A DNA stretch of 64,000 bases, from positions 1 to 64,000 of the forward strand of contig JADFMN010000003.1 in the NCBI GenBank assembly GCA_022563855.1. Direction: 5' to 3'. The position numbers were made by a program, and so were the translations under genes. A model generated the notes under the pieces. The model had not been told where the DNA came from and did no database searches. It was given only the letters and a program-made list of their open reading frames with translations. This stretch comes from Armatimonadota bacterium. GTDB lineage: Bacteria; Armatimonadota; Fimbriimonadia; Fimbriimonadales; Fimbriimonadaceae. This document shows, piece after piece, positions 21,335 through 64,000 of the stretch. Numbering within the stretch: the first letter of the stretch is position 1; the number at the start of each line of letters is the position of its first letter.

Positions 21335-22423
21335 GTGGATCCGTATCCTCGTACCTGGGTTGAAGTGGATTTGCCCGCGCTCGGTCGGAACTTGACCGTC
21401 GTGAGGGGCATCGTAGGTTCGGAGGTCAAGGTGGCCCTGGTGGCCAAGGCCGACGCCTACGGGCACGGCCTGGTCCCGGTGTGCAGGTACGCGCTTCGCT
21501 TCGGCGCTGATTACCTTGCAGTGGCCACCGTTCAAGAGGGCATAGCCCTGCGCGATGCAGGGATCGACGCGCCGATTCTGGTCCTCTCCCCCATGCTCCC
21601 AGTTGAGGCCGACCAGGCGGCGTTCTACGGCCTGGAGATCACGGTCGAAGGGCTCGAAATGAGCCAGGAGCTGAGCCGCGCGGCGCTGGAGTGCGGGCGA
21701 GACGTGAACCTTCACCTTAAGGTCGATACCGGACTATCGCGGTTCGGGTGCAAGCCGGAAGAGGCCGACGACGTGGCGGAGGCGATCACAGAGCTCCCGG
21801 GAGTAGATCTCATCGGCGTATCGCATCACTTTGCAACGGCGTCCGACCCGGACTCCGCAAAGCGCCAGATGCGACGGTTCCGCGATGCGATAGAAGCCTG
21901 CGAGCGAAACGGGATCACGTTTGCCATCCGACATGAGGCCAACTCGACTGCCACCGTGACCTACCCTGAGTCGCACCTCGACATGGTCCGCGTCGGAATG
22001 ATGGCGTACGGGTTCGGCGGGCATGCAGACATCGAGCCGGTGCTCAGTTGGTACAGCCGGATTTCGTCGCTGCGCGCGGTCGGACCGGGTGCGACACTCA
22101 GCTACGGTGAGACGTTTGCAGTTGAACGAGACATGCTTATCGCTACGGTCGGAGTCGGATACGGCGACGGTTACCCGCGGCGGTTGGACAGTAGCGCCTT
22201 CGTTTTGATTCGCGGCCAGCGCGCGCCGGTCGTGGGGGCCGTCTGCATGGATCAGGTGCTCGTGGACGTCACCAAAATCGAAGGCGCAGTACCGGGAGAC
22301 GTCGTCACGCTCATCGGCGACGGGGTCACCGCCGCGCAGCTCGCGGAGGCGGCGGGCACGATCTCGCACGAGATCGTAACGCGCATCATGTCCCGCGTCG
22401 CACGCCGGTATCTGTACGACTAG
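21335..22423 (+). CDS. alr: Alanine racemase
   Basis: A 362-residue PLP enzyme that interconverts L- and D-alanine for peptidoglycan. The PLP lysine is in VAKADAYGHG (K38), the catalytic Tyr in LSYGETF, and VDTGLSRFG, RHEANSTAT and VCMDQVLVDV fit the family. GTG 21335 is used because CAGAAT ends six bases upstream. Its last codons, encoding VARRYLYD, reappear at about 23560-23587 beyond the next gene, which marks an insertion between alr and serA. Confidence 0.92.
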   Translation: MDPYPRTWVEVDLPALGRNLTVVRGIVGSEVKVALVAKADAYGHGLVPVCRYALRFGADYLAVATVQEGIALRDAGIDAPILVLSPMLPVEADQAAFYGLEITVEGLEMSQELSRAALECGRDVNLHLKVDTGLSRFGCKPEEADDVAEAITELPGVDLIGVSHHFATASDPDSAKRQMRRFRDAIEACERNGITFAIRHEANSTATVTYPESHLDMVRVGMMAYGFGGHADIEPVLSWYSRISSLRAVGPGATLSYGETFAVERDMLIATVGVGYGDGYPRRLDSSAFVLIRGQRAPVVGAVCMDQVLVDVTKIEGAVPGDVVTLIGDGVTAAQLAEAAGTISHEIVTRIMSRVARRYLYD

Positions 22424-22562
22424 GTGCTGATGGCTGGCTCAGTTTCAGCAGTCCGGCTTGCTCAAACTGATGCACCGAGTAGCTAAGGTTGGCTGGGCGG
22501 CGGTTACGACCTGTAATCGAATCAACGAATCTTCTGCTGACCGTCGAGGCTGCTCGATCCGG

Positions 22563-23559: not shown

Positions 23560-23587
23560 CGTTGCGCGCAGGTACCTGTACGACTAG
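23560..23587 (+). pseudogene. alr: Displaced 3' end of alr
   Basis: The bases GTT GCG CGC AGG TAC CTG then TAC GAC TAG encode VARRYLYD and a stop, the same C-terminus as the intact alr gene. Five of these eight codons differ synonymously from the intact copy. Its TAG overlaps the stop of convergent serA, so this is probably the ancestral end of alr, with the intact copy's end brought in by the inserted DNA. Confidence 0.75.
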
Positions 23588-24792
23588 TTGGTCGAGATCG
23601 GCAGCACGCTCGCGTCGAAGATGTCGCTGTGCGTGCGGATTGTGACCAGTGCCTGTTCCGAGGGCGCCTTGTCCAGGGAGACGTGCGCGATGGCCGCCTT
23701 CGCCTTGCCCAGGATGACGTTCTCCATCTCTTGCACGTTCACCGAGTCGTCGCGCAACACGTCGAACACGTGCGCGAGCACGCCGACCTTGTCGAGGTGC
23801 CGCACGACGAGCAGGTGCGTCGCGATCTCGCCTCGCGTGACGTTCACCACGTTCGGAACGCCGCCGCTCGAGACGAACTCCTTTACGATCTGTACGACTT
23901 CATCGGCCACGGCCCCCTGCGCCTGCGCGGTGCTGGCGCCGATGTGGTGCGTGCAGTAGATTCCGGGGATATCCTTGATCTCGCCGTCGTAGCTCGCCTC
24001 GCCAGTCGTCGGCTCTCCCTCGATCACGTCGAGTCCGGCGACGATCTTGCCGGAGTTGACAGCCGCGATCAGGTCGTCCTGCACGACGACCTCCGCGCGG
24101 CTGGTGTTGATGAAGTAAGCCCCGTCCTTCATCGCGTCAAAGAAGCGCTTGTCGATCATCCTCGTCGTCTCCGAACGGAGCGCGACGTGCACCGAGACGA
24201 TGTCTGACTGTTGCGCCAACTCCTCGAGCGACTCCGCGCGACCGATGTTCAGACCGACTGCGGACTCCGGCGTCAAGAACCGGCTGAACCCCACGACGTT
24301 CATCCCGAACGCCTGCGCGCGCACGATCAGCTCTTGGGCCACGTTGCCCAGGCCGATGATGCCGAGCGTGCGACCGTACAGCCCCTTTCCTTTGCCGAAC
24401 CGCTTCTTGTTCCACTTTCCGGCTCGCAGCTCTGCGACGTTGTCGGGGATGAAGCGGTCGAGAGCGAGCATCAGCCCGAACGCCAGCTCGGCCACCGCGA
24501 TCGAGTTCTTGCCTGGGCAGTTCGCGACGTAAGTCCCACGCGTGCTGGCTGCCTCGACGTCAATGGTGTTATAGCCGGAGCCGGCGCGAATAATCAGCGA
24601 TAGGTTTGAGCCGTCCATAACGTTCTCGGGAACCCTCGTAGAGCGCACGATCAGGATTTCAGCCTGCGTCTCTTTCAGAGCATCGGCGAGAGCCCTTTCC
24701 TTCAGATCGGGATTGCTGACAACCTCGTACCCGAGGTCGCTGAGCCCGTCGAGGGCGCTCTGTTCGAGCTTGTCGGCGACTAGAACTTTCAT
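23584..24792 (-). CDS. serA: D-3-phosphoglycerate dehydrogenase
   Basis: A 402-residue 2-hydroxyacid dehydrogenase, the first enzyme of serine synthesis. It has the Rossmann loop LGIIGLGNVAQ, the catalytic Arg in FINTSRAEVV, the Glu in GLDVIEGEP and the His in CTHHIGAST. The last 75 residues form an ACT domain (VGVLAHVFDVLRDDSVNVQ), suggesting serine feedback. There is no intervening ASB domain. TAAACT lies eight bases before the ATG. Note VALRSETTRM where most relatives have VPLTPET, a small change beside the active site. Confidence 0.88.
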   Translation of the reverse strand: MKVLVADKLEQSALDGLSDLGYEVVSNPDLKERALADALKETQAEILIVRSTRVPENVMDGSNLSLIIRAGSGYNTIDVEAASTRGTYVANCPGKNSIAVAELAFGLMLALDRFIPDNVAELRAGKWNKKRFGKGKGLYGRTLGIIGLGNVAQELIVRAQAFGMNVVGFSRFLTPESAVGLNIGRAESLEELAQQSDIVSVHVALRSETTRMIDKRFFDAMKDGAYFINTSRAEVVVQDDLIAAVNSGKIVAGLDVIEGEPTTGEASYDGEIKDIPGIYCTHHIGASTAQAQGAVADEVVQIVKEFVSSGGVPNVVNVTRGEIATHLLVVRHLDKVGVLAHVFDVLRDDSVNVQEMENVILGKAKAAIAHVSLDKAPSEQALVTIRTHSDIFDASVLPISTN

Positions 24793-27978: not shown

Positions 27979-28599
27979 TTAGACCGCCGCGGGGTCGGCC
28001 GGCTGCGGCTCTTCAGCGGAGTCGATCAAGTCCGGCTGCGGCTCTTCTGCGGAGTCTATCAAGGCCGGTTGCTCGGGCACGACGTCCGCTCCGACCGCAT
28101 TGACGTTCAGCTCGACCGTTGGGAGGTCTTCGATCTTCTCCAGATTGAAGAGGTGCAAGAACTGTTGCGTCGTGCCGTAGAGCACGGGGCGTCCTGGTGT
28201 TGATTTCCGTCCGACCTCCGCGATCAAGCGCCGGTCGATCAGGCTGCGAAGGCCGTAGTCGCTCTGCATGCCCCTGACCTCGTCGATCTCTGCGATCGTG
28301 GTGGGCTGTTTGTACGCGATGATCGCCAGCACCTCCATCATGCTGCGGCTGAGCTTCTGCTTTTGCGGCTTGAGGAACCGTGCGACGTACTCTGCCGCCT
28401 CCGGCTTGGTGCAAATCTGATACCCGCCGGCGATTCGCACGATTTGGAGGGCGCCCTCGTGGGTCAGCTTGGCGCCCAGCTTTTCAAGCGCCTCTTCGAT
28501 CTCATAGATCGGCATTTCCAAGGCGTCCGCTAACTCTTCCGGCGTCGCGGGAGAATCCGCGACGAAGAGGAGCGCCTGAACCTTCTCGATCAGCCTCAC
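27979..28599 (-). CDS. scpB: Segregation and condensation protein B
   Basis: The protein is 206 residues from GTG 28599, whose codon overlaps the scpA stop; GGAG lies in the scpA end. Two winged-helix domains are visible: IEKVQALLFVADSP to about 75, then SRSMMEVLAIIAYKQPTTIAEI and the typical GRPVLYGTTQQFLHLF. It works with ScpA and SMC in chromosome condensation. After about residue 175 there is an acidic tail with two copies of LIDSAEEPQP, not part of the usual fold. Confidence 0.9.
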   Translation of the reverse strand: MRLIEKVQALLFVADSPATPEELADALEMPIYEIEEALEKLGAKLTHEGALQIVRIAGGYQICTKPEAAEYVARFLKPQKQKLSRSMMEVLAIIAYKQPTTIAEIDEVRGMQSDYGLRSLIDRRLIAEVGRKSTPGRPVLYGTTQQFLHLFNLEKIEDLPTVELNVNAVGADVVPEQPALIDSAEEPQPDLIDSAEEPQPADPAAV

Positions 28600-29351
28600 G
28601 ACCGAATCTCCTTGCGGAAGAGCGCTTCTCCCTTGCGTAACTTGACGACAGCCTGGCCGAGGCGGATGAGTTCCAGCAGGGCGAGGAACCACCACACAAC
28701 GTCGGATCGCGTGAAATCGCCGACAACGATCTCGTCGAGCGATGCGAACTCCTCTGGCAACGCCAACATGACCACGACCATTTCCTCGCTCAGCATTCGC
28801 CGATCTTGAGTGAGGGCACCGTTGAGATCTGGCCTCGCGCGTTCGAGCAGGCGGACAAGCGCCTTCCCCAGGGCGTCGATCGTGACGCTCGACGAATCCA
28901 GCGGCATTTCAAACGTGTCGCCGCGGCCGTTGAGGCTGCGGAAGAACACGCTTTCTCGGCTCTCCTTGAGTTCGCTGAGGGCGGTGATCGCCGGCTTGAA
29001 CTCGTCGATGTACGGCAGGATCGCCTCGAGCACTTCGTCGCCCTCCGGCTCGTCGGACTCGTTCGGGAGCAAGAGCCACGCCTTCCTCTCAAGCAGATAT
29101 GACAGCGCAGCGAGCGCGACGGCGGCGCTCTCAAGATCGTGCTCGGCGTTTTCGAGCAGGTACGCAAAGTACGCCTCGCAGATCGGCGCTAGCGGGACGC
29201 CCAGCAACTCGATCTTCTGCTCGCGGACGCACTCGAACAGAGTTGCCAGCGAGCCGCGGAACGCGTCGCACTCGACGTGAATTTCCGGTGGGGCGTAAAA
29301 CCCCAGCGGGCCGAGCTTTTCGCGACTGACGATTTCAGAACGGTGTGGCAT
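28596..29351 (-). CDS. scpA: Segregation and condensation protein A
   Basis: The protein is 251 residues from ATG 29351 (MPHRSEIVSREKLG); upstream in-frame codons lack homology. The family pattern appears in ECDAFRGSLATLFECVREQKIELLGVPLAPIC, which binds the SMC neck, and in the C-terminal winged helix VVWWFLALLELIRLGQAVVKL, which binds the SMC head. It is translationally coupled to scpB. No clear Shine-Dalgarno is seen at this start, so another start nearby is possible. Confidence 0.85.
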   Translation of the reverse strand: MPHRSEIVSREKLGPLGFYAPPEIHVECDAFRGSLATLFECVREQKIELLGVPLAPICEAYFAYLLENAEHDLESAAVALAALSYLLERKAWLLLPNESDEPEGDEVLEAILPYIDEFKPAITALSELKESRESVFFRSLNGRGDTFEMPLDSSSVTIDALGKALVRLLERARPDLNGALTQDRRMLSEEMVVVMLALPEEFASLDEIVVGDFTRSDVVWWFLALLELIRLGQAVVKLRKGEALFRKEIRS

Positions 29352-29478
29352 TGACCAACAACTGCCCAGGCACCCCAACGCCGGACTAGCTAAACAACAG
29401 GTTATCATCCAGACGGTCCGACACTGTCCTTTGCCGCCGACAAACAGGCCTGTTTTTCCACTAGACCTCCATTCGCCG

Positions 29479-30207
29479 TCAGGTTCGCCTCGCATAGCCG
29501 AAGCCGACGAAACTGTCCGGCGCTCCGTTGGAGACCCCGAATCCGATGTGGAAATCCCATTGGGTGTCTCTGTCCGGCTGGAACGTCAGCCCGAAATGAA
29601 GGATGTGGCCTGGCCTCATGGTTTCGCCGAAGTCGACGACATGCTCAACGAACGCGCCGAGTCGGTCTCCAGCCGGGAATCCTACAACGAACGTGTGTCT
29701 TAAGTCGGTTCTTCCTCCCGGCCACTCTGCCTGAATCTGACCGCCGAACGAGGTGCCGCCGGACTCTGTGGCCCATATGAATGCTGCCATCGGCGTCGTA
29801 TGGGCTGCGCGCAACCCGGCATCGCCGGTACGGAACGCGACTTGGCCGAGAAGCGCGAACTCGACTTTCTCGTCACCGTTGAGCTCCTGCTTGAAACCGA
29901 TGGCAACGTCTCCAAAGCCGGTGACGTCGGTGCTGGTTCCGTTCACTGAGAGATGATTCGGGAGCGCGAGCCGCAACTCCGAACCGGGCTGGAACCCGTA
30001 CCGTATCAGGGCCTCGCCGATGCTTGTAGCGTTGCCTGCGCCGTTCAGCTCTTCGTAGGTCATGCCGGTCTCGAACTGAAGGGCACCGACGGGCACCGCG
30101 CGAGACCCCTCGGTGAAGTCAGGTCGGTCGGTAGAGATGGGAGCGGACTTGAGATCGCTCGCGGCGATTTGAAGTAAGAGAGCCCCGAGGCCGACAAAAG
30201 TTAACAT
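29479..30207 (-). CDS. Outer-membrane beta-barrel protein (phenol-degradation MetA-like transporter family)
   Basis: A 242-residue protein with a short signal sequence (FVGLGALLLQIAA), then ISTDRPDFTEGSRAVP. That opening and the regular alternating strands (GALQFETGMTYEE, GFGDVAIGFKQEL, FGGQIQAEWPGG) are typical of the small barrel family annotated as transporter or MetA-pathway protein. It ends in FVGFGYARRT. It implies an outer membrane. CAAAAT lies six bases before ATG 30207. It probably ends near the ACAGGCCTGT palindrome followed by T-tract downstream. Confidence 0.7.
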   Translation of the reverse strand: MLTFVGLGALLLQIAASDLKSAPISTDRPDFTEGSRAVPVGALQFETGMTYEELNGAGNATSIGEALIRYGFQPGSELRLALPNHLSVNGTSTDVTGFGDVAIGFKQELNGDEKVEFALLGQVAFRTGDAGLRAAHTTPMAAFIWATESGGTSFGGQIQAEWPGGRTDLRHTFVVGFPAGDRLGAFVEHVVDFGETMRPGHILHFGLTFQPDRDTQWDFHIGFGVSNGAPDSFVGFGYARRT

Positions 30208-30946: not shown

Positions 30947-31002
30947 CTGCCAGGGATCAGTACGGCTTCTCTCTCGCCATAGGTGCCGCTGAGAGGAAGT
31001 TC

Positions 31003-31071
31003 TGGAGGCGTAGAGCGGATTCGAACCGCTGAATGACGGTTTTGAAGACCTTTACTCCAGTTCGGACACAG
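31003..31071 (-). pseudogene. Displaced, degenerate tRNA-Cys 3' part
   Basis: Positions 31003-31044 are identical to 34993-35034, the 3' 42 bases of the intact tRNA-Cys. One mismatch follows at 31045 (31003-31050 against 34993-35040 is 47 of 48). Similarity continues weakly through the D-arm (CCAGTTCGGACAC against CCACTTGGGCAC) but the 5' acceptor strand is absent, so it cannot fold as a tRNA. Same orientation as the intact gene, 3,990 bases away. Confidence 0.85.
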
Positions 31072-31175: not shown

Positions 31176-34100
31176 CTATCGCCAATCCCCGACGAGCATG
31201 AACGGCGCCCAGTGGAACGGGTGGCGCCATCTCGGGTCTTCGCGGATCGAGTCCATGGCACGCTGCAGGGCGACGTCCTTCGCCGCTCCTTTTATCAGCT
31301 CCGTGTAGAACGCGACCATCAGGGCCGACGTGCTGTCGTCCTGGACGCTCCACAGGCTAACGACGATGCTGCGCGCGCCGGCGTACTGCAATGCGCGAGT
31401 CAGGCCGATGACCCCTTCGCTTCTTGTAGTTTCTCCGAGCGCCGTCTCGCACGCGCTGAGCACCACGAGGTCCGCGTTCAGACGGAACCCCTCGAAGATC
31501 TCCCAGGCCTGCAGGAAGCCGTCGTCGCTCCCAGATGCCACGAGCGCAAGGCCGGACGCCAGCGGGTCCTCGTCGTCCAGCAGCCCGTGGCAGGCGAAGT
31601 GCACGATGCGCGCCCTCGGGGAAAGCTCCTTCGCCTCCGTCTCAGTCGCCATTGCGCCGAGACGGACTATGGCAGCGTCGCCGAACAGCGCGGCGATGGA
31701 CTCCACTTCAACCAGCGTGAACGGAAGGCGCGACAGTTCGCCCGACCTTAGACTGCTGCGACGAATGCGCGAGTCCTGATCGGCCTCTTCCTCGTTGCAG
31801 TTCCCTCCGTACGCCGGGTCGCCGAAGGCGAGAATCTCGTACTCGTACTCGTACTCCTTCGGGGATTCCTCCCACTGCAGGCGGGCCTCTGCGTAGACCG
31901 TCATCGAGACGATGGTGTGCAGAGGCTTCGCTTCTGTGAAGAAGCGGGCGTTCGCGAGGTCCTGCGAGCCTTCGGCGGGCGGTACGGGAACCGGCTTGCT
32001 GCCTCTTTGCCCTGCCCGCCAGGCGCCGCGCACGGTTTCTCTTTGCCTGGTCTTGCTCGCGCTGGGATCTTCGACCTTGGTGACCAGCGCCGCGAACGGC
32101 AGGTTGTGGAGCGGGCCGTCGGGGCAGATCAGGACGCGCTCGGCTCTTTCTACTTCGGATTCGGCAGGCCGGACGAGAAGGTCGTACAGGTCCTTGCCTT
32201 TTTGCACTACCGCTCCCCCCACGACGATCAAGGCCCTGAATTCTTCGACGAGCTGCTGCAATTCCTCTGCGCCGGCTTTCAAACGGTACAGCTTGAGGCC
32301 GTAGTCTTTCTCCTTCCGCGCTCCTTCTCCTCCCAGGAGGGTGAAGAGGTAGGTCTCCTCCCTGTCCACAAAATAGGTGAGCAGCAACGTTCCCTTGTCC
32401 AGCGCAGCTTGCGATCCCTCAAGGTCGAGCGGCTGCGGGTACTGGACCGCTGCGTACTTCGGCGACACTCTTCGGAACTCGGCGTCCAGCTCGCGCTGCT
32501 GGACCTTGAGGCTCAGTATCTCCGCCCGCAGCTCGTCCTCCCGAGCTGGGTCGGCTTTGTCTGCGAGCTTTGCGAGCATGGAATAAGCATTTGCTCTATT
32601 AGCATCAAGTTCGTTCTGTTCTTCGACCAGCACTACCGGCGCGTCTGCCGTGAAGTCCACTCCCCGTTCGGCGATCTGGTCCGCCAGGCCGCGCGCGCGG
32701 CTGCGCTCGACAACGTCGAAGGCCGTAGCTCCATCCGCCAACGCCACGTGCGCGCGGAGCAGTCCGGCATACGCATAGAATTGCCTGCCGAGAAACAACG
32801 AACGGACCTCAGCGGAGCGTATCGACCCACGTTGCGACTCGATGATCTCGATCGCTTGCGAGCAGTACTGGACTGCGTCAGCGAAGTTGTCTCGGTCGGA
32901 CGCGACAACGCCCAGGCTGTAGAGAATCGTGGCCACGTCGAGCGAATCCGGGGCGAGACGCTCCTCAATAGCCAGCGCGCGCTTGTGATACTCCTCCGCC
33001 GCCTGAAGGTCGCCACGGTCGTATGCTACCAATCCCAGGTTGTTGAGGCTCCCAGCCACGTCGAGCGAGTCGGGAGCGAGACGCTTCCTGATCCCCAGCG
33101 CGCGCTTGTGATACTCCTCTGCTGACTGCAGGTCGCCACGCCGCGATGCGACGCTTCCCAGGTTGTTGAGGCTAAGTGCCACGTGGAGAGAATCCGGAGA
33201 GAAACGCTCCTTTATTGCCAGCGCGCGCTTATAATACTCCTCGGCTGCCTGGAGGTCGCCACGGTCGTATGCTACCAATCCCAGGTTGTTGAGGCTCCCA
33301 GCCACGTCGTGCGAGTCGGGAGCGAGACGCTTCCTGATCCCCAGCGCGCGCTTGTGATACTCCTCGGCCGCCTGCAGGTCGCCACGGTCGTAGGCGACAG
33401 CGCCCAGGATGTTGAGGCTCATTGCCACCTCGAGCGAGTCCAGAGCCAGACGCTCTTTGATCGCCAGAGAGCGCCTGGAGTACTCCGCCGCCGCCTGCAG
33501 GTCGCCACGTTTGGATGCGACGTTGCCCAGGTTGTTGAGGCTCACGGCCACGCTGGGCGAGTCCGGAGCCAGACGCTCTTTGATCGCCAGAGAGCGCCTG
33601 TAGTACTCCTCCGCCGCCTGCAGGTCGCCACGTTTGGATGCGACGTTGCCCAGGTTGTTGAGGCTCATTGCCACATCGAGCGAATTGGGGGCCAGACGTT
33701 CCTTGATTTCCAACGCACGCGCGTAATAATTCTCCGCCGCCTGTAGGTTCCCTCGGCCACCTGCGGCGATCCCCAGATTGTTCAAGCTTGCGGCAACGGC
33801 GAGTGAATCGGGCGCTAGACGCTCCTCAATAGCCAGCGCGCGCAGGAAATACGAATCCGCTGCACCTGGGTCGCCACGGTCGTAGGCGACAGCGCCCAGG
33901 TTGTTGAGGCTCCCAGCCATGTCGAGCGAGTCCGGAGCCAGACGCTCTTTGATCGCCAGAGAGCGCCTGAAGTACTCCTCCGCCGCCTTCAGGTTCCCTC
34001 GGCCGCGTGCGGCGATCCCCAGGTTGTTGAGGCTCCCAGCCACGTCGAGCGAGTCGGGAGCGAGACGCTCCCTGATCTCCAGTACTCGCAGGAAATACGA

Positions 34101-34992: not shown

Positions 34993-35068
34993 TGGAGGCG
35001 TAGAGCGGATTCGAACCGCTGAATGACGGTTTTGCAGACCGTTCCCTTAACCACTTGGGCACTACGCC
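34993..35068 (-). tRNA. tRNA-Cys (GCA)
   Basis: Acceptor strands GGCGTAG (35068-35062) and CTACGCC (35003-34997) pair fully. The anticodon loop CTGCAAA lies in an ACGGT/ACCGT stem. The T-arm is AGCGG TTCGAAT CCGCT. Discriminator U and CCA are encoded (34993-34996). Its 3' part is duplicated at 31003. Confidence 0.95.
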
Positions 35069-40324: not shown

Positions 40325-40325
40325 G

Positions 40326-46067: not shown

Positions 46068-46099
46068 GTCTGGCCTCGAACAGGAGTACACTTCGGTAT

Positions 46100-46690: not shown

Positions 46691-46760
46691 AGGCTGGCTC
46701 AAATCGACGAGCTCTTAGGATCGTGACCGGGAGCAGTGTGATACGCTTGAGAGTAGATCA

Positions 46761-47108
46761 ATGATGGAAATCAGCGTTCATCGACCTTGGAATTACTTTG
46801 GCTGTGCGAGAAAGCTCAAAGTCCGAGTCGATGGCATGGTGATCGGCGCAGTGAAGGCAGGCAAGACTGAGGTCTTCGAAGTCATCGCTGCGGTTCACGC
46901 GGTCCAGGTTTCCATGGACTGGGTCAAGAGCCCGGCAGTCGAGGTCGATCTGAGATCAATCGATCGAGCTGAACTAAGAGTTCAGTTCGCGAGCATTCCA
47001 GAGAGTCTTGTCTATACGTTCTTTGCCCCTACGAAGATATTCACCCTGGTTCACCTGTCCGAACGCCCTCCGATTCAGAACGGTGTTAGTCCCTATCCGA
47101 GGGCATGA
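46761..47108 (+). CDS. Small hypothetical protein
   Basis: A 115-residue cytosolic protein, HRPWNYFGCARKLKVRVDG at the start, then VIGAVKAGKTEVFEVIAA and VHAVQVSMDWVKSPAV. The R-V-V-D-G-x-x-x-G-x-x-K-x-G pattern followed by H-x-V-x-x-x-x-D-W resembles small beta-sandwich domains that follow PEGA or DUF2846 patterns. That is weak inference. It ends close to the truncated tfoX gene. Confidence 0.5.
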   Translation: MMEISVHRPWNYFGCARKLKVRVDGMVIGAVKAGKTEVFEVIAAVHAVQVSMDWVKSPAVEVDLRSIDRAELRVQFASIPESLVYTFFAPTKIFTLVHLSERPPIQNGVSPYPRA

Positions 47109-47136
47109 CCGACAGGTTGTTCGATAGACTGGCGCG

Positions 47137-47271
47137 ATGCACTCGAACATGGAGATTGTCGAACGTTTGCGTGACGAATTGGAGGGTCAATTGGGGGTTA
47201 AAGAGACGAAGATGTTTGGCGGAATCTGCTTCATGCTCAACGGCAACATGTGTGTCGGGGTGTGGCGTTGA
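47137..47271 (+). pseudogene. Truncated TfoX N-terminal domain gene
   Basis: A 44-codon frame, MHSNMEIVERLRDELEG then KETKMFGGICFMLNGNMCVGV, matches the first half of TfoX_N proteins (MFGGxxFMxNGNM). It then stops at 47269-47271, and the second half is absent. Its promoter-like TAGACT remains six bases before the ATG. The break falls 92 bases before the dehydratase operon, so it probably marks an insertion or deletion edge. Confidence 0.75.
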
Positions 47272-47363
47272 TGTAGATGGTCACAGGTGATTGTTCGCGA
47301 GCTATCTTCGAAGATCCGGGGTGGCCATTCAGCAAGAAATTCTGGGCCCGGTAGACTGCCTCC

Positions 47364-48314: not shown

Positions 48315-48321
48315 GCAACCG

Positions 48322-50272: not shown

Positions 50273-50337
50273 TCCGCGCTTACTCGATTGTGCTTGAGAA
50301 CGAACCATCCGCAAAGAAGGTTTGACTCAAGCGGCTG

Positions 50338-50491
50338 ACGACTGAGGCCCGCAGATCCACTAACGCAAATCACCCCTGCGGAGAATCGCGAAGGGCGGCC
50401 CCCACCGTTTCTCAAGCTCGAACCCGAGCCTCGCTGTGTAGAACTCGAGGACCGCATCTACGTCGTCAACAAGGTAACGCACGGTAGCCAT
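50338..50491 (-). pseudogene. N-terminal remnant of the VOC gene
   Basis: From 50491 it reads MATVRYLVDDVDAVLEFY, then TARLGFELEKRWGPPF, then AILRRGDLR and a stop where the intact gene continues. It then has ICGPQSS and ends. The similarity to 45777-45959 spans about 190 bases including the upstream region. The second half of the gene is missing. Confidence 0.85.
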
Positions 50492-50523
50492 GTCAATAAC
50501 TTCCTAGCGTATCCAACTGAGTA

Positions 50524-56229: not shown

Positions 56230-58404
56230 ATGAATCAGGAGACAGCGAGCCGTGCCGGGGGCAAGCCCCAGCGGAAAACAGGCCTTGAAACCGAGGTTCA
56301 GTGGCTGAAAGGCGTCGGGCCCAAGCACGCCGTGTCGTTGGGCAAGCTGGGCATCGAAACGGTCGGCGACCTGCTGTTCTACATGCCTCGCCGGTACGAA
56401 GATCGCCGGAACCTCCCGCCGATCGGTTTCCTGAAGCCGGGGCAGCAAGCGACGATCCGCGGCGAGATCGTGGATATCCGGTCGCGCAAGGGCAGGGGCG
56501 GAAAGGTCATTCTCACCGTGACGGTCGGCGACGGCACCGGACACGTGCGGCTCATTTGGTTCAACCAGCCGTGGCTGCGAAAGACTTTGGAGAGCGTGAA
56601 GGGCGAGGTCATCGCGTTCGGCATGGTCAAAGAGTCGCGGCAGATCATGGAGATGTCCAGCCCTGAGTGGGAAGCCGTCGAAGACGACGACGACAGCGAG
56701 GACTTCGCCCGAATCACGCCGGTGTATCCGCTGACCGAGGGCGTTCAACAGTGGGTCGTGAGGCGGGCTGCCCGCTCTGCGGTCGACTACTTCGGCGATC
56801 AGCTCAAGGACCCTTTGCCGAAAGAGCTGCGCAAGAGCCACGATCTGCCCGATCTGGCTTGGACAGTCCGCCAGATGCACGGCCCCGATGGCGAGAAAGA
56901 GCAAGAGCAGGCGCGACGGAGGCTCGTGTTTGAGGAGTTCCTGTTCCTACAACTCTCGCTTCAGATGCGTCGCGCCGAAGTGAAGCAGGAGATCGGAACC
57001 GTGTTCCCGATCTCGAAGATCGGGTCTGACGAGATGCCCGACGGCGGGACGCTGTTCGCCGAGGGGGTCGAGCGTCTGCCGATTTGGGAAGAGCTGGTCA
57101 AAATGCTGCCGTTCGAGATGACCGATGCCCAGCGTCGGGTCACCCAAGAGATTTTCGACGACATGGAGCGGCCCGCGCCGATGAACAGGCTGCTGCAGGG
57201 CGACGTCGGCAGCGGCAAGACGGCGGTCGCCGCGGCCGCGATGTTGGCTGCGGTCCGGTGCGGGTGGCAAGCGGCGCTCATGGTACCGACCGAAATCCTC
57301 GCGGAACAGCACCACGTCAACTTCCGCGAACTGTTCGACCCGGTGGGCGTTCGAGTTGGGCTGCTGGTCGGCAGGATGGGAGCGCGGGCCAAGAAGAAGG
57401 CCGTCGACGGGGCTTTATCAGGAGAGCTGCAGATCGTGGTCGGCACCCACGCCTTGATCCAAGACAAGGTCGAGTTCGCCAAGATGGGCCTGGCGATCAT
57501 CGACGAGCAGCACAGGTTCGGCGTCATGCAGCGCGCTGCGCTGAGGGGGAAGGCGCGGGAGAACCCCGATGTTCTGGTGATGACCGCGACGCCGATCCCT
57601 CGAACGCTGACGATGACGCTGTACGGCGACCTCGACCTCTCCGTGATCGACGAGATGCCGCCGGGCCGAAAGCCGATCAAGACGCATTGGAAGCTCCCCC
57701 ACGAGCGGCCACAGGTCTACGCTTCGGTCCGCAAGCTCTTGGACGGCAAGCGCCAGGCGTACTTCGTCTGCCCGATGATCACAGAGAGCATCAAGATGCA
57801 GACACAGGCGGCGGTGGACCTCCACTACCGCCTCAGCGAGGACGTTTTCAAGGACTTCCGCGTCGGCCTGTTGCACGGCCAGATGAAGTCGGCCGAGAAG
57901 GAGGAGGCGATGAATCGGTTCCGGAACGCCGAGCTCGACGTGCTCGTTTCGACGGTGGTGATCGAGGTCGGCGTCGATGTGCCAAACGCCAGCGTGATGG
58001 TGATCGAAGACGCAAACCGGTTCGGCCTCAGCCAGTTGCACCAGCTCCGCGGGCGCGTCGGTCGGGGCCGTTATCAGAGCTACTGCGTGCTGATCGCCGA
58101 CGGTCGGACGGCGGACGCGCAAAGGAGGCTGGAGGTGCTGGTGCAGACCACGGATGGCTTCCTGATCGCCGAAGAGGACCTGAGAATACGCGGCCCCGGC
58201 GACATGGCGGGAACGCGCCAGCACGGCGAACTCGACTTCCGGTTTGGCGATTTAATCCGGGACGGCGTGCTGCTCGAAGAGGCTCGCAGCGCGGCGATCG
58301 CTGTACTTGCGGACGACCCGGGCTTAGCGTCCAAGAAGAACGCAGATATACTGAACCGAGTGAAGCAGCGGCGCTCTGAAGAATCGTTGATCACCGTGTC
58401 ATGA
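56230..58404 (+). CDS. recG: ATP-dependent DNA helicase RecG
   Basis: A 724-residue branch-migration helicase for stalled forks and recombination intermediates. The N-terminal wedge/OB region has VQWLKGVGPKHAVSLGKLG and LLFYMPRRYEDRR. The motor has motif I GDVGSGKTA, motif II IIDEQHRFGV, motif III VMTATPIPRTL, motif V STVVIEVGVDVPNA and motif VI QLRGRVGRG. The length is normal. It is translationally coupled (ATGA) to a rhodanese gene. Confidence 0.95.
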   Translation: MNQETASRAGGKPQRKTGLETEVQWLKGVGPKHAVSLGKLGIETVGDLLFYMPRRYEDRRNLPPIGFLKPGQQATIRGEIVDIRSRKGRGGKVILTVTVGDGTGHVRLIWFNQPWLRKTLESVKGEVIAFGMVKESRQIMEMSSPEWEAVEDDDDSEDFARITPVYPLTEGVQQWVVRRAARSAVDYFGDQLKDPLPKELRKSHDLPDLAWTVRQMHGPDGEKEQEQARRRLVFEEFLFLQLSLQMRRAEVKQEIGTVFPISKIGSDEMPDGGTLFAEGVERLPIWEELVKMLPFEMTDAQRRVTQEIFDDMERPAPMNRLLQGDVGSGKTAVAAAAMLAAVRCGWQAALMVPTEILAEQHHVNFRELFDPVGVRVGLLVGRMGARAKKKAVDGALSGELQIVVGTHALIQDKVEFAKMGLAIIDEQHRFGVMQRAALRGKARENPDVLVMTATPIPRTLTMTLYGDLDLSVIDEMPPGRKPIKTHWKLPHERPQVYASVRKLLDGKRQAYFVCPMITESIKMQTQAAVDLHYRLSEDVFKDFRVGLLHGQMKSAEKEEAMNRFRNAELDVLVSTVVIEVGVDVPNASVMVIEDANRFGLSQLHQLRGRVGRGRYQSYCVLIADGRTADAQRRLEVLVQTTDGFLIAEEDLRIRGPGDMAGTRQHGELDFRFGDLIRDGVLLEEARSAAIAVLADDPGLASKKNADILNRVKQRRSEESLITVS

Positions 58405-58727
58405 AGGACGTTCCGCAAGTCACCGTGGAAGAGTTGAACGAGGAGCTGCGCGGAGACGCGCCTCCGGTTCTGCTGGACGTTCGAGAAGATGACGAGCTGA
58501 AGATCAGCAAGCTCGACTATCGGCACCACATCCCGGTCGACGACTTGCGGGATCGGGTAGATGAGCTGAGCCCGGACGACGACATCGTGGTGATTTGCCG
58601 AACCGGATTGCGATCTGGCAACGCGACTACGTTCCTGCGGGAGAAGGGTTTCACCCGCGTCCGGTACATGTTCGGGGGCATGAACGAGTGGTCCGAGCGA
58701 ATCGATCCGACGATGCGGCAGTACTGA
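58401..58727 (+). CDS. Rhodanese-like domain protein
   Basis: A 108-residue single rhodanese domain, PPVLLDVREDDELKI and the active-site loop CRTGLRS with the catalytic Cys. It could transfer sulfur or act as a sulfur carrier; the partner is unknown. The start overlaps the recG stop (ATGA). Confidence 0.88.
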   Translation: MKDVPQVTVEELNEELRGDAPPVLLDVREDDELKISKLDYRHHIPVDDLRDRVDELSPDDDIVVICRTGLRSGNATTFLREKGFTRVRYMFGGMNEWSERIDPTMRQY

Positions 58728-59184
58728 GGGGCGCTTCGCTGACACGGGCCTTGAGGAGATGCGCCTTGGTGCTGGCAGGGCGAGCACGTCATCCTGAGCC
58801 TGTCGAAGGACCTCGCGAGCCGCGCTCGGTTTTGGGAGTGCGCCTTCCTTCGCCATCGCTTGTTGCAAGACTAGGCGGCTTGACGCCTACTTGGCCTCAC
58901 GCTCTTGATCGCGCGTCCGTGGACTAAGAGTCCACGGGCCGGGATGCGGACTAAGAGTCCGCGCTCCTTTCCAGCCCCAGAACCGTCATCCTGAGCGGAT
59001 CGAAGGAGCATGGTTCTGGGGTGATCGCTTCGACAACATGTGCTGGTCGAGCTGTCACATCGTAGCGGTCGGCAGTTTATTCGAATCCCAATCGCGCTCC
59101 TTGTCCTCGTCGAGCTCAGAACAGGCTCGCTCAGGATGACGATTGGGATTCTAATCTCTCGGGACTCGGGACTCGGGACTGGTC
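58728..59184. repeat. Spacer filled with dispersed short repeats
   Basis: No gene is seen. CATCCTGAGCCTGTCGAAGGAC (58790) recurs as GTCATCCTGAGCGGATCGAAGGA (58986) and inverted as AGGCTCGCTCAGGATGAC (59124). Two hairpins, CGTGGACT-AAG-AGTCCACG (58918-58936) and GCGGACT-AAG-AGTCCGC (58946-58962), share a loop. GGGACTC is repeated three times at 59160-59180. These words look like widespread intergenic repeats. Confidence 0.65.
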
Positions 59185-59232
59185 CCTACTTCTTCTTCGT
59201 GAACCGCCGTCGCTTGGTCGATTCCGTTGCAG
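59185..59232 (-). pseudogene. topA: Displaced 3' end of topA
   Basis: On the minus strand the DNA encodes TKRRRFTKKK and a stop, exactly the C-terminus of the intact topA gene, with three synonymous differences over the ten codons. Weaker similarity extends a few codons upstream. It lies in the same orientation as topA, 2.78 kb away, with the kinase-HD gene between. Confidence 0.85.
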
Positions 59233-59322: not shown

Positions 59323-61740
59323 CTATCGTCTCTTAGTTGTAGGCAGCATCTTTAGAATGTCATTCTGGACTGTTGCGAACTTGCCAGTGGACATAAGATC
59401 GTCTCGCACCTTCTGAGGTACGAATACGCGTATCTTCTTGACCAACGACTGAAAATTCTCGAACACAGACTTGGACACTCCAGAAATACGGCTGAGAGGT
59501 TCGATGCTGTATCCCTGCGCACTTCCAAGCATCTTGGTGCGCACAAATATTTCCCTACTTGCATCTTCTTCTGGATCAATGCGGGGAATGTCTAGTAAGA
59601 CACAACTAGCATGATCGATAGTTGCGATGCCAGATTCGCTGATGATGTTCGTAATTCTTAGTCGTAGCGCCTCGACGCCTGCAGAATCCAATCCTATAAG
59701 GTGTTTATATGTAATCTTGTACTTGCCCCTGTCTGTGATCTCGATCAAGCGACGGTAATGACCTCGCCCTCCACTTAGCAGACTCACTAGCGGATTGGAC
59801 TCAGCCGGAAAATTGATTTCAAACTCTAGTGACAGCAGGGCAACGGCCTCGTAATCAGTCATGAACATACTTCGGTAGACATATTCTTTAAAACCAAATC
59901 CTGTCGCATCAATAAACAGCTTGCGAGCAACGTACTTGATCATAGCCATCATCGCTCGATTAGCATGGTGCCAATACACTCTCGCGTACATGTGGTATCG
60001 GGCAATCACAATGCTTTCTGCCGCCATAATTGCTTTCTCAGCTACTCCGATCTGCGCATTACGATCGCCCTGCTCGGGGATGGCAATCAGTCCATCAAGC
60101 AACGCGTCCAAATCAACTCCGGATCCATAACCAACGCCAGTGAAAAGGCTATCGGACGTCAGATATGCAACCTTGTCTGCATCGATTGGTCCATCAATAA
60201 TGGAAGTTTGCAAGTGTGCAACCTCCGATGTCCCCTCTCCTTCTATGAGCGAAACTACTTGCCTATAATCCAGTCCCCAAGCTGGTTCATCAAGTATGTC
60301 GGCCAGCGACTTGTCAATGTTTTGCTCACTGCCATCGGTAGCTGCAGTTGTGCCCTTGAAGTTCAGGAAATAGCGGGACATTCTGCTATGGAATTCGGGC
60401 GGACGTCCCTTGAACAAGTTTTCCGTAGCCTCGCGAGGAGTACAGAGGTCATCTAGTGCATGGGCGAGCGGGTAGTGCCCAATATCGTGAAGAAGGGCCG
60501 ACGCGAGAAGTAGAGAGTGATCCTTTGGGAACATCAATATCCTTGCTGTAGGATCTGAGATAAGGGCTCGAACATATTGTTTGACGACAGAGAAAGTTGC
60601 TAGAGAGTGGGCAAATCTAGAGTGCTTAGCATCTGGAAACACACGCTCTACAAGATTGAGCTGATTCTGAAACCGTAATCGCTGAAACATAGGGTGGTCG
60701 ACAAGTGCCTGAGCCCTGCTGGACAGCGATACACGGTGTGTTGCGAGATTGACTTTTTGCTCTGAGCGCTCAACTCGAAATTCAGGCACTCCAAGTGGTT
60801 CGGTATATGACGCTGACAGTTTCTCAAAGTCCAGCAGAGCCTGAGAAGCTGATCGGTAGCAATGTGGATCGTTTCGATCACTCACTAGCAAGCGACGTAT
60901 AAAGGATTTCATGAGGTGCAGATCACTTGCAGTTAGCTCAGACTTGATATTTGGCTTAATGTGTTCGAGGAGCTCGTCAAAATCACGATCGGATTTCGCT
61001 GGAATTGTCTTTTGCGAAACCAATTCACAGAATGTAGTGCCTAGGCAGTATAGGTCAAGATGTGGTAAAAATTCTGAGAGCAATGCTCGTGAGACTTTCT
61101 TTCCGATGAGTTCACGTGCGTAATTTGGTGCATACCTATGTGAGCCGAAGAGAGGCGTATCTGCAAGGAACTCAATTGTGGCAGAATCACCTGTTTTGAA
61201 GGAAAGGGGTTTAGCGCATCCGAGATCCGCAATTCTTACCTCTAGTTCCCCATTCGGCAAGCGCAAGTAAAGAAGATTCGAGGGCTTAATATCGCAGTGC
61301 AGAATCTCTTGTGAGTGAAGATACTCTAGACCCGTGAGAACTTGACGAAAGCAATCGATGATTTCAGTCCCATCAGAGATAGACCTGAAAAGTGCGGACA
61401 ATGTTGGTTCGTCGCCATCAGCCGAGGGCATCAGTTCCATCACGTAGAATGGACGGATCTTGCCTGCATGCTCGACTTCTCCCGCGTCGACAATCTTCAC
61501 TACATTGCGATGTGTGATTGAAGATAGCAAGCGTATTTCGTTCTCGAACGTTCTATCAAAGGTCTTCGCGCGTGGGCCGCGAGCATATAGTGGATGCGAA
61601 AGTTTGAGTGCCCGTCGAGCTCCTAGGCTGAGCTGTTCAACCTCGTACAGTTTAGCTGCACCACCATGAGAGATGGATGCTACCACTCGATACTTCTGAT
61701 CTACGATGTCGCCGTCGGTGATTGCTTTCGCGCTCGGCAT
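59323..61740 (-). CDS. Ser/Thr protein kinase fused to a SAMHD1-like HD phosphohydrolase
   Basis: An 805-residue protein. Residues 16-310 are a Hanks-type kinase: Gly-loop SHGGAAKLYEV, Lys46 in RALKLS, catalytic loop LHCDIKPSNLL (Asp150, Cys in place of the usual Arg), DLG (172-174) in place of DFG and SHRYAPNYARE for the APE region. Residues 340-805 match COG1078 HD proteins: HPMFQRLRFQNQL, HSRFAHSLATF (H378), LLHDIGHYPLAHAL (H418, D419) and the later Asp in PIDADKVAYL. The HD part may hydrolyse dNTPs. Base composition is clearly AT-richer than its neighbours. TATCAT lies ten bases upstream. Confidence 0.88.
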   Translation of the reverse strand: MPSAKAITDGDIVDQKYRVVASISHGGAAKLYEVEQLSLGARRALKLSHPLYARGPRAKTFDRTFENEIRLLSSITHRNVVKIVDAGEVEHAGKIRPFYVMELMPSADGDEPTLSALFRSISDGTEIIDCFRQVLTGLEYLHSQEILHCDIKPSNLLYLRLPNGELEVRIADLGCAKPLSFKTGDSATIEFLADTPLFGSHRYAPNYARELIGKKVSRALLSEFLPHLDLYCLGTTFCELVSQKTIPAKSDRDFDELLEHIKPNIKSELTASDLHLMKSFIRRLLVSDRNDPHCYRSASQALLDFEKLSASYTEPLGVPEFRVERSEQKVNLATHRVSLSSRAQALVDHPMFQRLRFQNQLNLVERVFPDAKHSRFAHSLATFSVVKQYVRALISDPTARILMFPKDHSLLLASALLHDIGHYPLAHALDDLCTPREATENLFKGRPPEFHSRMSRYFLNFKGTTAATDGSEQNIDKSLADILDEPAWGLDYRQVVSLIEGEGTSEVAHLQTSIIDGPIDADKVAYLTSDSLFTGVGYGSGVDLDALLDGLIAIPEQGDRNAQIGVAEKAIMAAESIVIARYHMYARVYWHHANRAMMAMIKYVARKLFIDATGFGFKEYVYRSMFMTDYEAVALLSLEFEINFPAESNPLVSLLSGGRGHYRRLIEITDRGKYKITYKHLIGLDSAGVEALRLRITNIISESGIATIDHASCVLLDIPRIDPEEDASREIFVRTKMLGSAQGYSIEPLSRISGVSKSVFENFQSLVKKIRVFVPQKVRDDLMSTGKFATVQNDILKMLPTTKRR

Positions 61741-61963: not shown

Positions 61964-61964
61964 C

Positions 61965-64000
61965 CTACTTTTTCTTCGTGAACCGTCGGCGCTTGGTCGG
62001 ACCCTTGGCAGCCTTCGCTTTGACCAGCTCGACCGCCTTTTCCGGCGTCAAGTCAGCAGGGTCGAGCCCCTTGGGGAGGGTCGCGTTGACCTTGCCGTTC
62101 TTCACGTAAGGCCCGTACCGCCCGCTCAGCAGTTGCACCGGCCCTTCGAGCCCTTCAAGCTCGCCGAAGTCCTTGATGATCTCCGGGCCAGAGCGCGCCT
62201 TCTTTGCGTTCACCAAGAACACGACCGCCTCATCGACTGTGACAGAAGCGCCCTTGCGCCAGTCGCCGACGTTCGCCTTCTTGTCGCCGCAGATCAGATA
62301 CGGCCCAAACTTGCCGAGCGCGACGGAGATCATGTCGCCGCTCTCGGGGTGCGGGCCGATCTCGCGCGGGTAGCTGAGGAGGATCGCCAGCTCCTTGTCC
62401 CCGATCTCTGCCGGCTTCAGCTCCTTCGGGATCGTGATACGCTTCGGCTTCTTTCCGCTCTTCCTCTCAGCCTCGGTCTGCTCGACCTCCAGATAGTCGC
62501 CGAACCGACCTGTCTTGTGGAGCACGCACTGCCCCGTCGCGGGGTCTTCGCCCAGAGCCTGACCGCCCGCCTTCTTCTGCGCCAGAAGTTCGAGCGCTAT
62601 CTCCAGCGTCAACTCCGCCGGCGGCAAATCGCCAGGGACGCTGGCCGTGTTGCCGGGGCCGCCCTCCCCTCGCTGGAGGAAAGGACCGTTGCGGCCAATT
62701 CGAACGATGATGTTTTCGCCGACGGCGATCGCAGGGAACGGAATATCTTTGCTCAAATGCGTGACCTGCGGCTCGATCCCAGGATGTTCATCAGTGCCGG
62801 TATAGAACTCTCGCAGATAGCCAACGTGGTCTAGGTTGCCGTTAGCAATCTCATCAAGCTGTTCTTCGAGCTGCGCCGTAAAGGTCGTATCGACCAGCTC
62901 CGTGAAGTTGTTCTCCAGAAGCTCCGTCACGGCGAACGCGGTGAACGTTGGCACTAGTTCTCGGCCTTTCTTGAAGATATATCCGCGGTCTTCGATGGTT
63001 CCGAGGATGCTCGCGTAGGTACTTGGCCGTCCGACGCCTTCTGACTCCAGCTCCTTGACGAGCGACGCCTCGGTGAACCGCGCGGGCGGTCGTGTTGCGT
63101 GCTCGGTCGCGCGGACTTCCTTTGCCGCCAGCTCTTGCCCCTTCTCGAGGGTGGGAAGGATGCGCTCCTTGTTGGCCAAGTCGGCGTCAGGGTCGTCTGC
63201 GCCCTCCACATACGCTTTCAGGAAACCCGGAAAGAGGATGCTCTTGCCGCTCGCAGCAAATACGAACTTCGTGCCGTTGCTCGAGACCGCGATAGAGACT
63301 CTTGTACGCTCAACCTCTGCAGGCTTCATCTGACAGGCGATCGTTCTTTTCCAGATCAAGTCGTACAGCTTGAACTGGTCCGCAGATAGAGAACTCCTTA
63401 CATCCTGCGGTCGACGGGCGAGATCCGAAGGGCGGATCGCCTCGTGAGCTTCCTGAGCGTTCTTAGACTTCGACTTGTACTGCTTCGGCTTGGCGGGAAC
63501 GTGCTCAGCGCCGTACAGGTCGCCAATCACCGTGCGTGCCTGCTTGATCGCTCGATCTGCGAGCGTGAGGCTGTCGGTACGCATATACGTGATCAAACCG
63601 ACCCGTTCGCCGCTGCCGAGGTCGATGCCTTCGTACAGTTGTTGGGCGATTCTCATCGTTCGACGGGCCGTGTAGCCGAGCTTTCGGTTTGCCTCTTGTT
63701 GCAGCGTCGAGGTCATGAACGGCGGTGGAGGGTTCTCCCTGCCCGGCTTCGCATCGATATCTGACACGGTCCAAGGCGAACTTTCGGCGACGGCAGCTTG
63801 GAACGACTGTGCCTCGTTCGCCATGAGCCAGCGAACTTTGTCAGATGAGAGCTGTCCCCGGCTGTCGAAATGCTCGCCCTCCGCGACCCTGGCGTCGTCG
63901 ACGCTGCGCAGTCGCGCGACGAACGATTGCCCGTTTGTCACAAGGGTCGCTTCAACCCCCGAGTACTCGGCGATGACGAACTGCTTGCGCTCTCTTTCAC
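61965..64000 (-). CDS. topA: DNA topoisomerase I (N-terminus beyond right edge)
   Basis: The visible 678 or so codons cover most of a type IA topoisomerase, which relaxes negative supercoils. The catalytic Tyr is in VGLITYMRTDS; EAHEAIRPSD, TRPPARFTEASLVKELE and GIGRPST-like GVGRPSTYASI fit the family. The C-terminal part has several GRYGPYV/GKFGPYL repeat modules replacing zinc fingers, and a basic tail. The frame stays open to 64000. Its 3' end is duplicated at 59185. Confidence 0.93.
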   Translation of the reverse strand, partial: ERERKQFVIAEYSGVEATLVTNGQSFVARLRSVDDARVAEGEHFDSRGQLSSDKVRWLMANEAQSFQAAVAESSPWTVSDIDAKPGRENPPPPFMTSTLQQEANRKLGYTARRTMRIAQQLYEGIDLGSGERVGLITYMRTDSLTLADRAIKQARTVIGDLYGAEHVPAKPKQYKSKSKNAQEAHEAIRPSDLARRPQDVRSSLSADQFKLYDLIWKRTIACQMKPAEVERTRVSIAVSSNGTKFVFAASGKSILFPGFLKAYVEGADDPDADLANKERILPTLEKGQELAAKEVRATEHATRPPARFTEASLVKELESEGVGRPSTYASILGTIEDRGYIFKKGRELVPTFTAFAVTELLENNFTELVDTTFTAQLEEQLDEIANGNLDHVGYLREFYTGTDEHPGIEPQVTHLSKDIPFPAIAVGENIIVRIGRNGPFLQRGEGGPGNTASVPGDLPPAELTLEIALELLAQKKAGGQALGEDPATGQCVLHKTGRFGDYLEVEQTEAERKSGKKPKRITIPKELKPAEIGDKELAILLSYPREIGPHPESGDMISVALGKFGPYLICGDKKANVGDWRKGASVTVDEAVVFLVNAKKARSGPEIIKDFGELEGLEGPVQLLSGRYGPYVKNGKVNATLPKGLDPADLTPEKAVELVKAKAAKGPTKRRRFTKKK

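What the first reader, a model, noticed from the sequence alone, without database searches (positions are those of the whole stretch)
22398..62012. Recurrent insertion slots: an intact host gene, one accessory gene, and a displaced second copy of the host gene's 3' end
Seen directly: four host genes (alr, tRNA-Cys, an EEP gene, topA) each have a second copy of their 3' end, same orientation, 1.0-4.0 kb downstream, with one accessory gene in between and no recombinase. In alr and topA the copies encode the same last 8-10 residues through synonymous codons; in the EEP gene 38 of the last 39 residues agree. Known: integrative elements targeting tRNA or gene 3' ends carry a replacement end and leave the native end at the far side. 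Here the slots carry only one cargo gene. I infer either single-gene cassettes moved by a recombinase encoded elsewhere, or repeated uptake of related DNA with one homologous and one illegitimate junction.
Basis: partly seen in the sequence, partly recalled or inferred. Interest (0 to 1): 0.92.

Follow-up and report, generated by a model that had tools for sequence, protein, structure and literature searches.

The report
Gene-end scars from related DNA
Several ordinary genes of this bacterium are followed by a foreign stretch and then a leftover stub of the gene's own end, most likely scars left when DNA from a related species was recombined into the chromosome rather than a new kind of jumping cassette.

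Summary
All four second copies are real, and a fifth, at a glyoxalase-type (VOC) gene, lies in the same window. The genome belongs near Fimbriimonadaceae (Armatimonadota). Relatives have empty sites: alr abuts serA, topA faces a rhodanese gene, scpA follows tRNA-Cys. A scan of 864 kb of this genome (27%) adds gyrA, a TauE-family gene, hppD, a pirin gene and two 5'-end cases. Stubs lie beyond the duplicated end in 9 of 9 scan hits, one Rhs-like hit dropped. Differences between copies are mostly synonymous (31 of 41 in the window; 48 of 72 over ten slots found by DNA match), so the two ends mostly diverged in separate functional lineages before being joined. No junction motif stands out, both gene ends are used, and two slots hold no called gene. 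This disfavours cassettes moved by one recombinase and favours recombination with DNA of related species: homologous on the gene side, illegitimate (or one crossover with a circle) on the other. The kind is known; so many cases in one genome is what is new.

The parts
21335..22423 (+). alr, intact (alanine racemase)
   Evidence: Pfam Ala_racemase N and C; one match in own genome
22563..23528 (-). passenger of the alr slot, 321-aa lipoprotein-like protein, no Pfam family
   Evidence: two paralogues (56-57% aa) elsewhere in this genome, one weak match (E 3e-4) in 60 relatives
23560..23590 (+). alr 3'-end remnant, its stop codon overlapping the serA stop
   Evidence: read as the native end, since alr and serA abut in relatives
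23584..24792 (-). serA, native neighbour of alr
   Evidence: Pfam 2-Hacid_dh; synteny
34993..35068 (-). tRNA-Cys(GCA), intact
   Evidence: ARAGORN
31176..34889 (-). passenger of the tRNA-Cys slot: PDZ-TPR-CHAT protein, 1237 aa
   Evidence: Pfam
30996..31053 (-). tRNA-Cys 3'-half remnant
28596..29495 (-). scpA, the gene that follows tRNA-Cys in a third of the relatives examined; here also separated by 29479-30207 and 30254-30946
   Evidence: Pfam SMC_ScpA; adjacency
41848..42738 (+). EEP gene (Exo_endo_phos), intact, itself accessory
   Evidence: Pfam; only weak partial matches in relatives
42770..43543 (-). passenger of the EEP slot, 257 aa, no Pfam family
43579..43779 (+). EEP 3'-end remnant with a frameshift at the identity step (73% then 91%)
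45567..45935 (-). VOC (glyoxalase family) gene, intact
   Evidence: Pfam Glyoxalase; start placed
45946..50330 (.). passenger of the VOC slot: Y1 transposase-like ORF, PALP, ornithine-cyclodeaminase family, PALP and short ORFs
   Evidence: Pfam
50331..50501 (-). VOC 5'-end remnant, decayed (two stops in its 60-codon protein match, 50312-50491)
61965..64000 (-). topA, intact (runs past the window end to contig position 64577)
59323..61740 (-). passenger of the topA slot: Ser/Thr kinase plus HD-type protein, 805 aa
   Evidence: Pfam; PADLOC PD-T4-6 models to E 4e-27; only partial matches in 60 relatives, best 32%
59179..59232 (-). topA 3'-end remnant
58401..58727 (+). rhodanese-like gene, native neighbour of topA
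   Evidence: Pfam; synteny in 6 of 19 loci

Best explanation
Each slot is the scar of a past recombination event with DNA of a related species. Incoming DNA carried an orthologue of the host gene end plus whatever followed it in the donor. It paired by homology inside the host gene (inferred), so the resident gene now ends in the donor's version (inferred) followed by donor passenger DNA. The far end was joined without extended homology at a point inside the resident gene's own end, or the donor was a circle that entered by a single crossover; both give the same anatomy. What is left of the resident end is the stub, still next to its old neighbour (shown by synteny for alr; supported for topA; for tRNA-Cys two more genes intervene). 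Passenger genes are incidental: none, one or several. Scars are seen at gene ends because the gene must stay intact and because homology between related species fades where intergenic DNA begins (inferred).
For: Empty sites: alr-serA convergent with the passenger absent in 6 of 29 relative loci (in two of them serA matches only over residues 1-306) and 6 of 25 named loci, matched ends 6-36 bp apart (the two sets may share genomes); topA-rhodanese facing in 6 of 19 loci; scpA 22-222 bp after tRNA-Cys in 10 of 29 loci, plus one whose coordinates were shifted by a contig end and one at 1.1 kb. In L192 and L193 the alr and serA stops overlap as the stub's stop does here. Synonymous excess: 31 of 41 substitutions in the four coding slots of the window (p 9e-5) and 48 of 72 in ten slots found by DNA match (p 2.5e-4), against 46% under the most lenient decay model tried. 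Polarity: 7 of 7 3' stubs lie downstream and 2 of 2 5' stubs upstream (one Rhs-like hit dropped). Copies stop matching 0-10 nt past the gene boundary in alr, tRNA-Cys, EEP, topA, hppD, pirin, M42 and the 606-aa gene. No shared junction k-mer beyond shuffles. A ComEC homologue is present. Passengers of three slots lack close relatives in 60 genomes.
Against: No donor lineage with gene end plus the same passenger was found, so donor origin of the intact end is inferred. Microhomology at the far junction cannot be judged without a donor. Stubs are too short for trees. gyrA (4 synonymous of 11), YCII (4 of 8) and the 723-aa gene (2 of 8) show no clear synonymous excess. YCII similarity runs 84 nt past the called start and VOC keeps patchy similarity upstream, so the gene-boundary rule is not strict. 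EEP has an identity step that one event does not explain. HFIR is rare in the laboratory, 10^2 to 10^6 times below homologous recombination (PMC3240628, passages), no Ku was found, and 7-19% divergence makes pairing inefficient. In most relative loci the empty junction could not be seen at all.
Confidence: 0.75

Rival explanations
1. Integrase-type elements: a site-specific recombinase inserts a cassette that carries a replacement gene end; the recombinase is encoded elsewhere or lost.
For: Anatomy (intact end, cargo, displaced native end) is that of islands in tRNA and gene 3' ends (recalled); the tRNA-Cys stub runs from near the anticodon to the 3' end.
Against: No k-mer shared at junctions beyond shuffles over 11 slots; 5' ends used as well; slots without a called gene; five tyrosine-recombinase matches in the genome, none in the window. 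Serine recombinases were not searched genome-wide.
Confidence: 0.1
2. Local duplication of the gene end (long target duplication or partial tandem duplication) with later decay of the second copy.
For: Direct orientation and short distance; 'insertion with long target duplication' is described for H. pylori (passages of PMC1643837); gyrA, YCII and the 723-aa gene show no clear synonymous excess.
Against: Synonymous excess over decay models for the set; most duplicates stop at the gene boundary; EEP and TauE-family copies use different stop codons.
Confidence: 0.07
3. Assembly artefact: related strains mixed in the assembly, with haplotype ends joined wrongly.
For: Contamination is given as 3.27% and nearly all named relatives are metagenome-assembled; whether this assembly is an isolate or a bin is not known.
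Against: 22 contigs for 3.18 Mb; the alr stub sits exactly beside its native neighbour; many slots share one polarity; one slot also in G007, a single-contig genome.
Confidence: 0.05

Closest known systems
Homology-facilitated illegitimate recombination (HFIR) and the single-crossover product of the same assay (PMC3240628, passages read)
   Same: One homologous and one non-homologous junction, inserts of about 1 kb. In that E. coli study 56 of 60 clones gave the PCR product of a lacZ-end duplication (14 sequenced, 109-950 bp), put down to a single crossover with a circle; 4 of 60 were HFIR. The duplication is the anatomy seen here.
   Different: Here old scars at many loci of one wild genome, with a diverged donor gene end; recipient deletion and microhomology not measurable.
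Displacement of T6SS effector ends and orphan immunity arrays in Vibrio cholerae (PMC5361080, passages read)
   Same: New module enters by upstream homology; the old gene's 3' end is shifted downstream; the authors propose an HFIR-like event and cite the same idea for Rhs loci.
   Different: There the host genes are toxin loci; here they include alr, tRNA-Cys, topA and gyrA, and the passenger is unrelated to the host gene.
Insertion with long target duplication, H. pylori (Nobusato 2000, not read; described in passages of PMC1643837)
   Same: Gene inserted between long direct copies of target sequence.
   Different: Here the copies mostly diverged synonymously before joining.
Integrative elements at tRNA and gene 3' ends (recalled)
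   Same: Intact end on one side, displaced native end on the other.
   Different: No integrase found in the slots, no common site, 5' ends too, passenger often one gene or none.

Membership tests
HFIR product | Homologous segment at one junction | tested here: met
   Diverged homologous gene end at the slots
HFIR product | Other junction without homology or with 3-10 bp microhomology | tested here: inconclusive
   The 12 nt beside the stub show no clear match to the host gene in most slots; donor unknown, so microhomology cannot be scored
HFIR product | Recipient DNA lost between the two junctions | not testable with these tools
   Needs the recipient's sequence before the event
Site-specific integrative element | Recombinase gene in or beside the element | tested here: not met
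   None among the main ORFs of the four slots and no tyrosine-recombinase match in the window; the VOC slot has a Y1 transposase-like ORF
Site-specific integrative element | Common attachment sequence among sites | tested here: not met
   No 6-8-mer shared beyond shuffles over 11 slots, 80-nt junction windows
Site-specific integrative element | Precise excision or a circular form | not testable with these tools
   Needs reads or PCR
Insertion with long target duplication | Copies identical at insertion, diverging only afterwards | tested here: not met
   Synonymous excess over decay models for the set, 48 of 72; not clear for gyrA, YCII and the 723-aa gene
Insertion with long target duplication | Empty site in relatives | tested here: met
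   alr-serA, topA-rhodanese, tRNA-Cys-scpA

The most novel reading that the evidence does not exclude
A recombinase-free form of mobility: genes that circulate among Fimbriimonadaceae because they stay linked to a neighbour's gene end, which works as a homology arm and lets the same module re-enter the same gene of any relative, leaving one stub per entry.
Probability: 0.12. Interest if true: 0.85.

Novelty: new variant of a known kind. Interest (0 to 1): 0.5.

Why it matters
Half-homologous, half-illegitimate recombination is rare in the laboratory and hard to see in genomes. A stub that matches a gene end by synonymous codons, placed beyond that end and beside the old neighbour, marks such an event without needing close strains. 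If the reading holds, the rate at which wild bacteria trap foreign genes this way can be counted from single genomes and compared between lineages. It would also warn that an intact gene's end may be foreign, and that a displaced copy of a gene end is not by itself evidence for an integrase.

Tried and rejected
Chance matches: rejected by antisense, displaced and inverted controls. Tandem paralogues: removed by requiring similarity under 60 aa. A shared recombinase site: no motif. NHEJ as the joiner: no Ku match. Donor lineages: passengers of the alr, topA and hppD slots were sought in 60 relatives; the best were partial or remote (hppD passenger 33% in G032). PADLOC: of five passengers scanned the topA one matches defence kinase models and the CHAT one a TPR model, so 'defence cassettes' is not supported for the set. 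The one search hit at C1:398996 is a tRNA-Thr, not a second Cys stub. Pairs of the DNA scan that I left unclassified and out of all counts: C1:220263, C1:408355, C1:481790, C3:157631 and those in the Rhs-like and transposon-like regions.

Strength of the family comparison: with every hit counted, 8 of 759 genes here against 3 of 1040 in samples of G007, G010 and G018 for 3' ends (p 0.06), 10 against 4 with 5' ends (p 0.03); without the Rhs-like hit here and the two hits in one G018 tandem region, which I did not study further, 7 of 759 against 1 of 1040 (p 0.012). A cruder scan of 23 Armatimonadota loci (425 kb) and 40 loci of other phyla (708 kb) gave 0 short hits each, against 4 + 4 here, of which I count 5 as slots; it also gave 5 unfiltered antisense hits on C1. 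The G007 sample too has more direct than inverted repeats (21 against 5). A first synonymous count used other frames for EEP and VOC; replace it. The 92-substitution count includes slots picked by protein score and is biased towards synonymous change; I rely on the DNA-picked sets.
Full report
What was checked. The window is contig C3:1-64000 of a 3.18-Mb, 22-contig genome. The closest named relatives are Fimbriimonadaceae and other Armatimonadota. The copies are in the same orientation, 1.0 to 4.0 kb beyond the intact end, with one main gene between. A fifth case in the window has the 5' end of a VOC gene repeated 4.4 kb away, 45775-45945/50331-50501 (89%), around a Y1 transposase-like ORF and a PALP/ornithine-cyclodeaminase/PALP set.

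Is it more than chance. In 864 kb of this genome (window, C3 to 364 kb, C1 to 500 kb), low-copy direct repeats 0.3-12 kb apart number 83 against 17 inverted ones at the same score, tandem paralogues included; at three larger distance bands the two kinds are alike (8, 14, 10 direct against 13, 9, 4 inverted). A scan of the last 12 residues plus stop of each called gene, with paralogues and repeats removed, leaves 8 sense and 0 antisense hits in 759 genes; the 5' scan leaves 2 sense and 1 antisense. One of the 8 lies in an Rhs-like locus (C3:102833) and is dropped below. The others are alr, EEP, topA, gyrA, a TauE-family gene, hppD and a pirin gene; the 5' hits are an M42 peptidase and a YCII gene (families; hppD named from its sequence, recalled). 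tRNA-Cys and VOC come from the DNA comparison, as do two weaker 3' cases (723-aa and 606-aa genes, C1:124717 and C1:373586). In 400 kb of G007, a single-contig relative, there is one clear case (689-aa gene, two passenger ORFs); G010 has none; G018 has three hits in one tandem region that I did not count as slots.

Empty sites. alr and serA are convergent neighbours in 6 of 29 relative loci examined (two with a serA match over residues 1-306 only) and in 6 of 25 named loci, where matched ends are 6-36 bp apart; the sets may overlap. None of these carries the passenger. In L192 and L193 the two stop codons overlap, as the stub's stop overlaps serA's here. So the stub sits where the native alr end belongs. 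A rhodanese gene, with recG beyond it, faces topA in 6 of 19 loci. The matched part of scpA starts 22-222 bp after tRNA-Cys in 10 of 29 loci, plus L149 whose coordinates were shifted by a contig end, and 1.1 kb after it in L167; L142 shows osmC, tRNA-Cys and scpA in a row. In this genome two further genes (29479-30946) also separate the stub from scpA. For EEP no empty site can be shown: the gene has only weak partial matches in relatives. In the other loci the neighbour was not found within the short flanks held, which says nothing either way. G007 keeps alr-serA (20 bp apart) and topA-rhodanese-recG as local blocks without the passengers, while other genes of the region have moved.

How the copies differ. 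In the four coding slots of the window 31 of 41 substitutions are synonymous; over ten slots picked by DNA match, the two weaker ones and YCII included, it is 48 of 72. Decay of one copy after a local duplication, with the other fully constrained and a transition bias of 4, would give 46% (p 9e-5 and 2.5e-4). The excess is not universal: gyrA has 4 of 11, YCII 4 of 8, the 723-aa gene 2 of 8. Some copies use a different stop codon (EEP, TauE family). Similarity ends 0-10 nt past the gene boundary in alr, tRNA-Cys, EEP, topA, hppD, pirin, M42 and the 606-aa gene, but YCII runs 84 nt past the called start and VOC keeps patchy similarity upstream. The copies mostly look like ends of orthologues from separate species, 81-93% alike, brought together later. 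The VOC stub has since decayed (two stops).

Mechanism. The stubs lie beyond the duplicated end in 7 of 7 3' and 2 of 2 5' scan hits. This is what follows if incoming DNA with a related gene end recombines inside the resident gene and its trailing DNA is then joined into the resident gene's end, or if a circle with a gene-end fragment enters by one crossover. Shown: both copies, empty sites, polarity, synonymous divergence of the set, native position of the alr stub. Inferred: that the intact end is the donor's, the order of events, and the carrier. A ComEC homologue is present, so uptake is possible; no Ku was found. In a published E. coli test meant to catch HFIR, 56 of 60 clones gave the PCR product of a lacZ-end duplication, 14 were sequenced (109-950 bp) and put down to a single crossover with a circle, and 4 were HFIR (PMC3240628, passages). 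I cannot tell the two routes apart. Pairing at 10-20% divergence is inefficient (recalled), but natural transformation with DNA up to about 23% diverged has been studied (start of the abstract of PMC6382021 in the listing).

Why not a cassette system. Eleven slots share no junction 6- to 8-mer beyond mononucleotide shuffles (lowest 21 of 300). Five tyrosine-recombinase matches exist in the genome, none in the window; serine recombinases were not searched. Slots at gyrA and the TauE-family gene hold 286 and 266 bp and no called gene. Passengers are unlike one another: a lipoprotein-like protein with two paralogues in this genome, PDZ-TPR-CHAT and kinase-HD proteins, metabolic genes. The tRNA-Cys slot, with a stub from near the anticodon on, could be an old integrase island and is the weakest fit.

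Known or new. HFIR and displaced gene ends are known; Kirchberger and colleagues propose an HFIR-like event for T6SS arrays and cite the idea for Rhs loci (PMC5361080, passages). HFIR has also been proposed for small variable segments of E. coli (PMC2884548, passages). Insertion with long target duplication is known from H. pylori (PMC1643837, passages; the original was not read). In five paper searches, of which I saw listings and the passages named, I did not meet a genome-wide set of such scars at housekeeping genes. About 11 firm cases in 27% of one genome is high, but the comparison with relatives is only suggestive (p 0.06 for 3' ends with every hit counted, 0.012 after exclusions).

Open points. 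The EEP stub changes from 73% to 91% identity at a one-base frameshift, which a single event does not explain. The donor is unseen. Read-level support for the contigs could not be checked.

Noticed in passing
L039 (G000:C1:380001-400000), about 3.3-13.5 kb: A series of single accessory genes separated by related repeats of 40-120 nt, two of them paralogues of the alr-slot passenger; it resembles a repeat-spaced gene array.
   Followed up: partly
window 29479-30946: A Phenol_MetA_deg family gene and a type-IV-pilin-like gene lie between the tRNA-Cys stub and scpA, where 10 of 29 relative loci have at most 222 bp; perhaps an earlier insertion without a stub.
   Followed up: partly
window 43579-43779: The EEP stub is a mosaic: 73% identity, then a one-base frameshift, then 91% identity to the intact gene.
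   Followed up: partly
G000:C3:92000-107500 (L025, L026): Rhs-like locus (label from sequence, recalled) with repeated 3' modules and small paralogous genes, a classic setting for displaced gene ends.
   Followed up: no
G000:C1:297600-301800: Tandem family of about 110-aa proteins starting MKKLGAGLAVLGV.
   Followed up: no
window 58787-59007 and 45995-46065: Repeats (CATCCTGAGC..., and an inverted GCAGGATGCCTGCA...), the second next to a Y1 (IS200-like) transposase-like ORF, possibly a REP and RAYT pair.
   Followed up: no
window 59323-61740: The topA passenger is a Ser/Thr kinase with an HD-type region that matches PADLOC phage-defence kinase models (PD-T4-6).
   Followed up: partly
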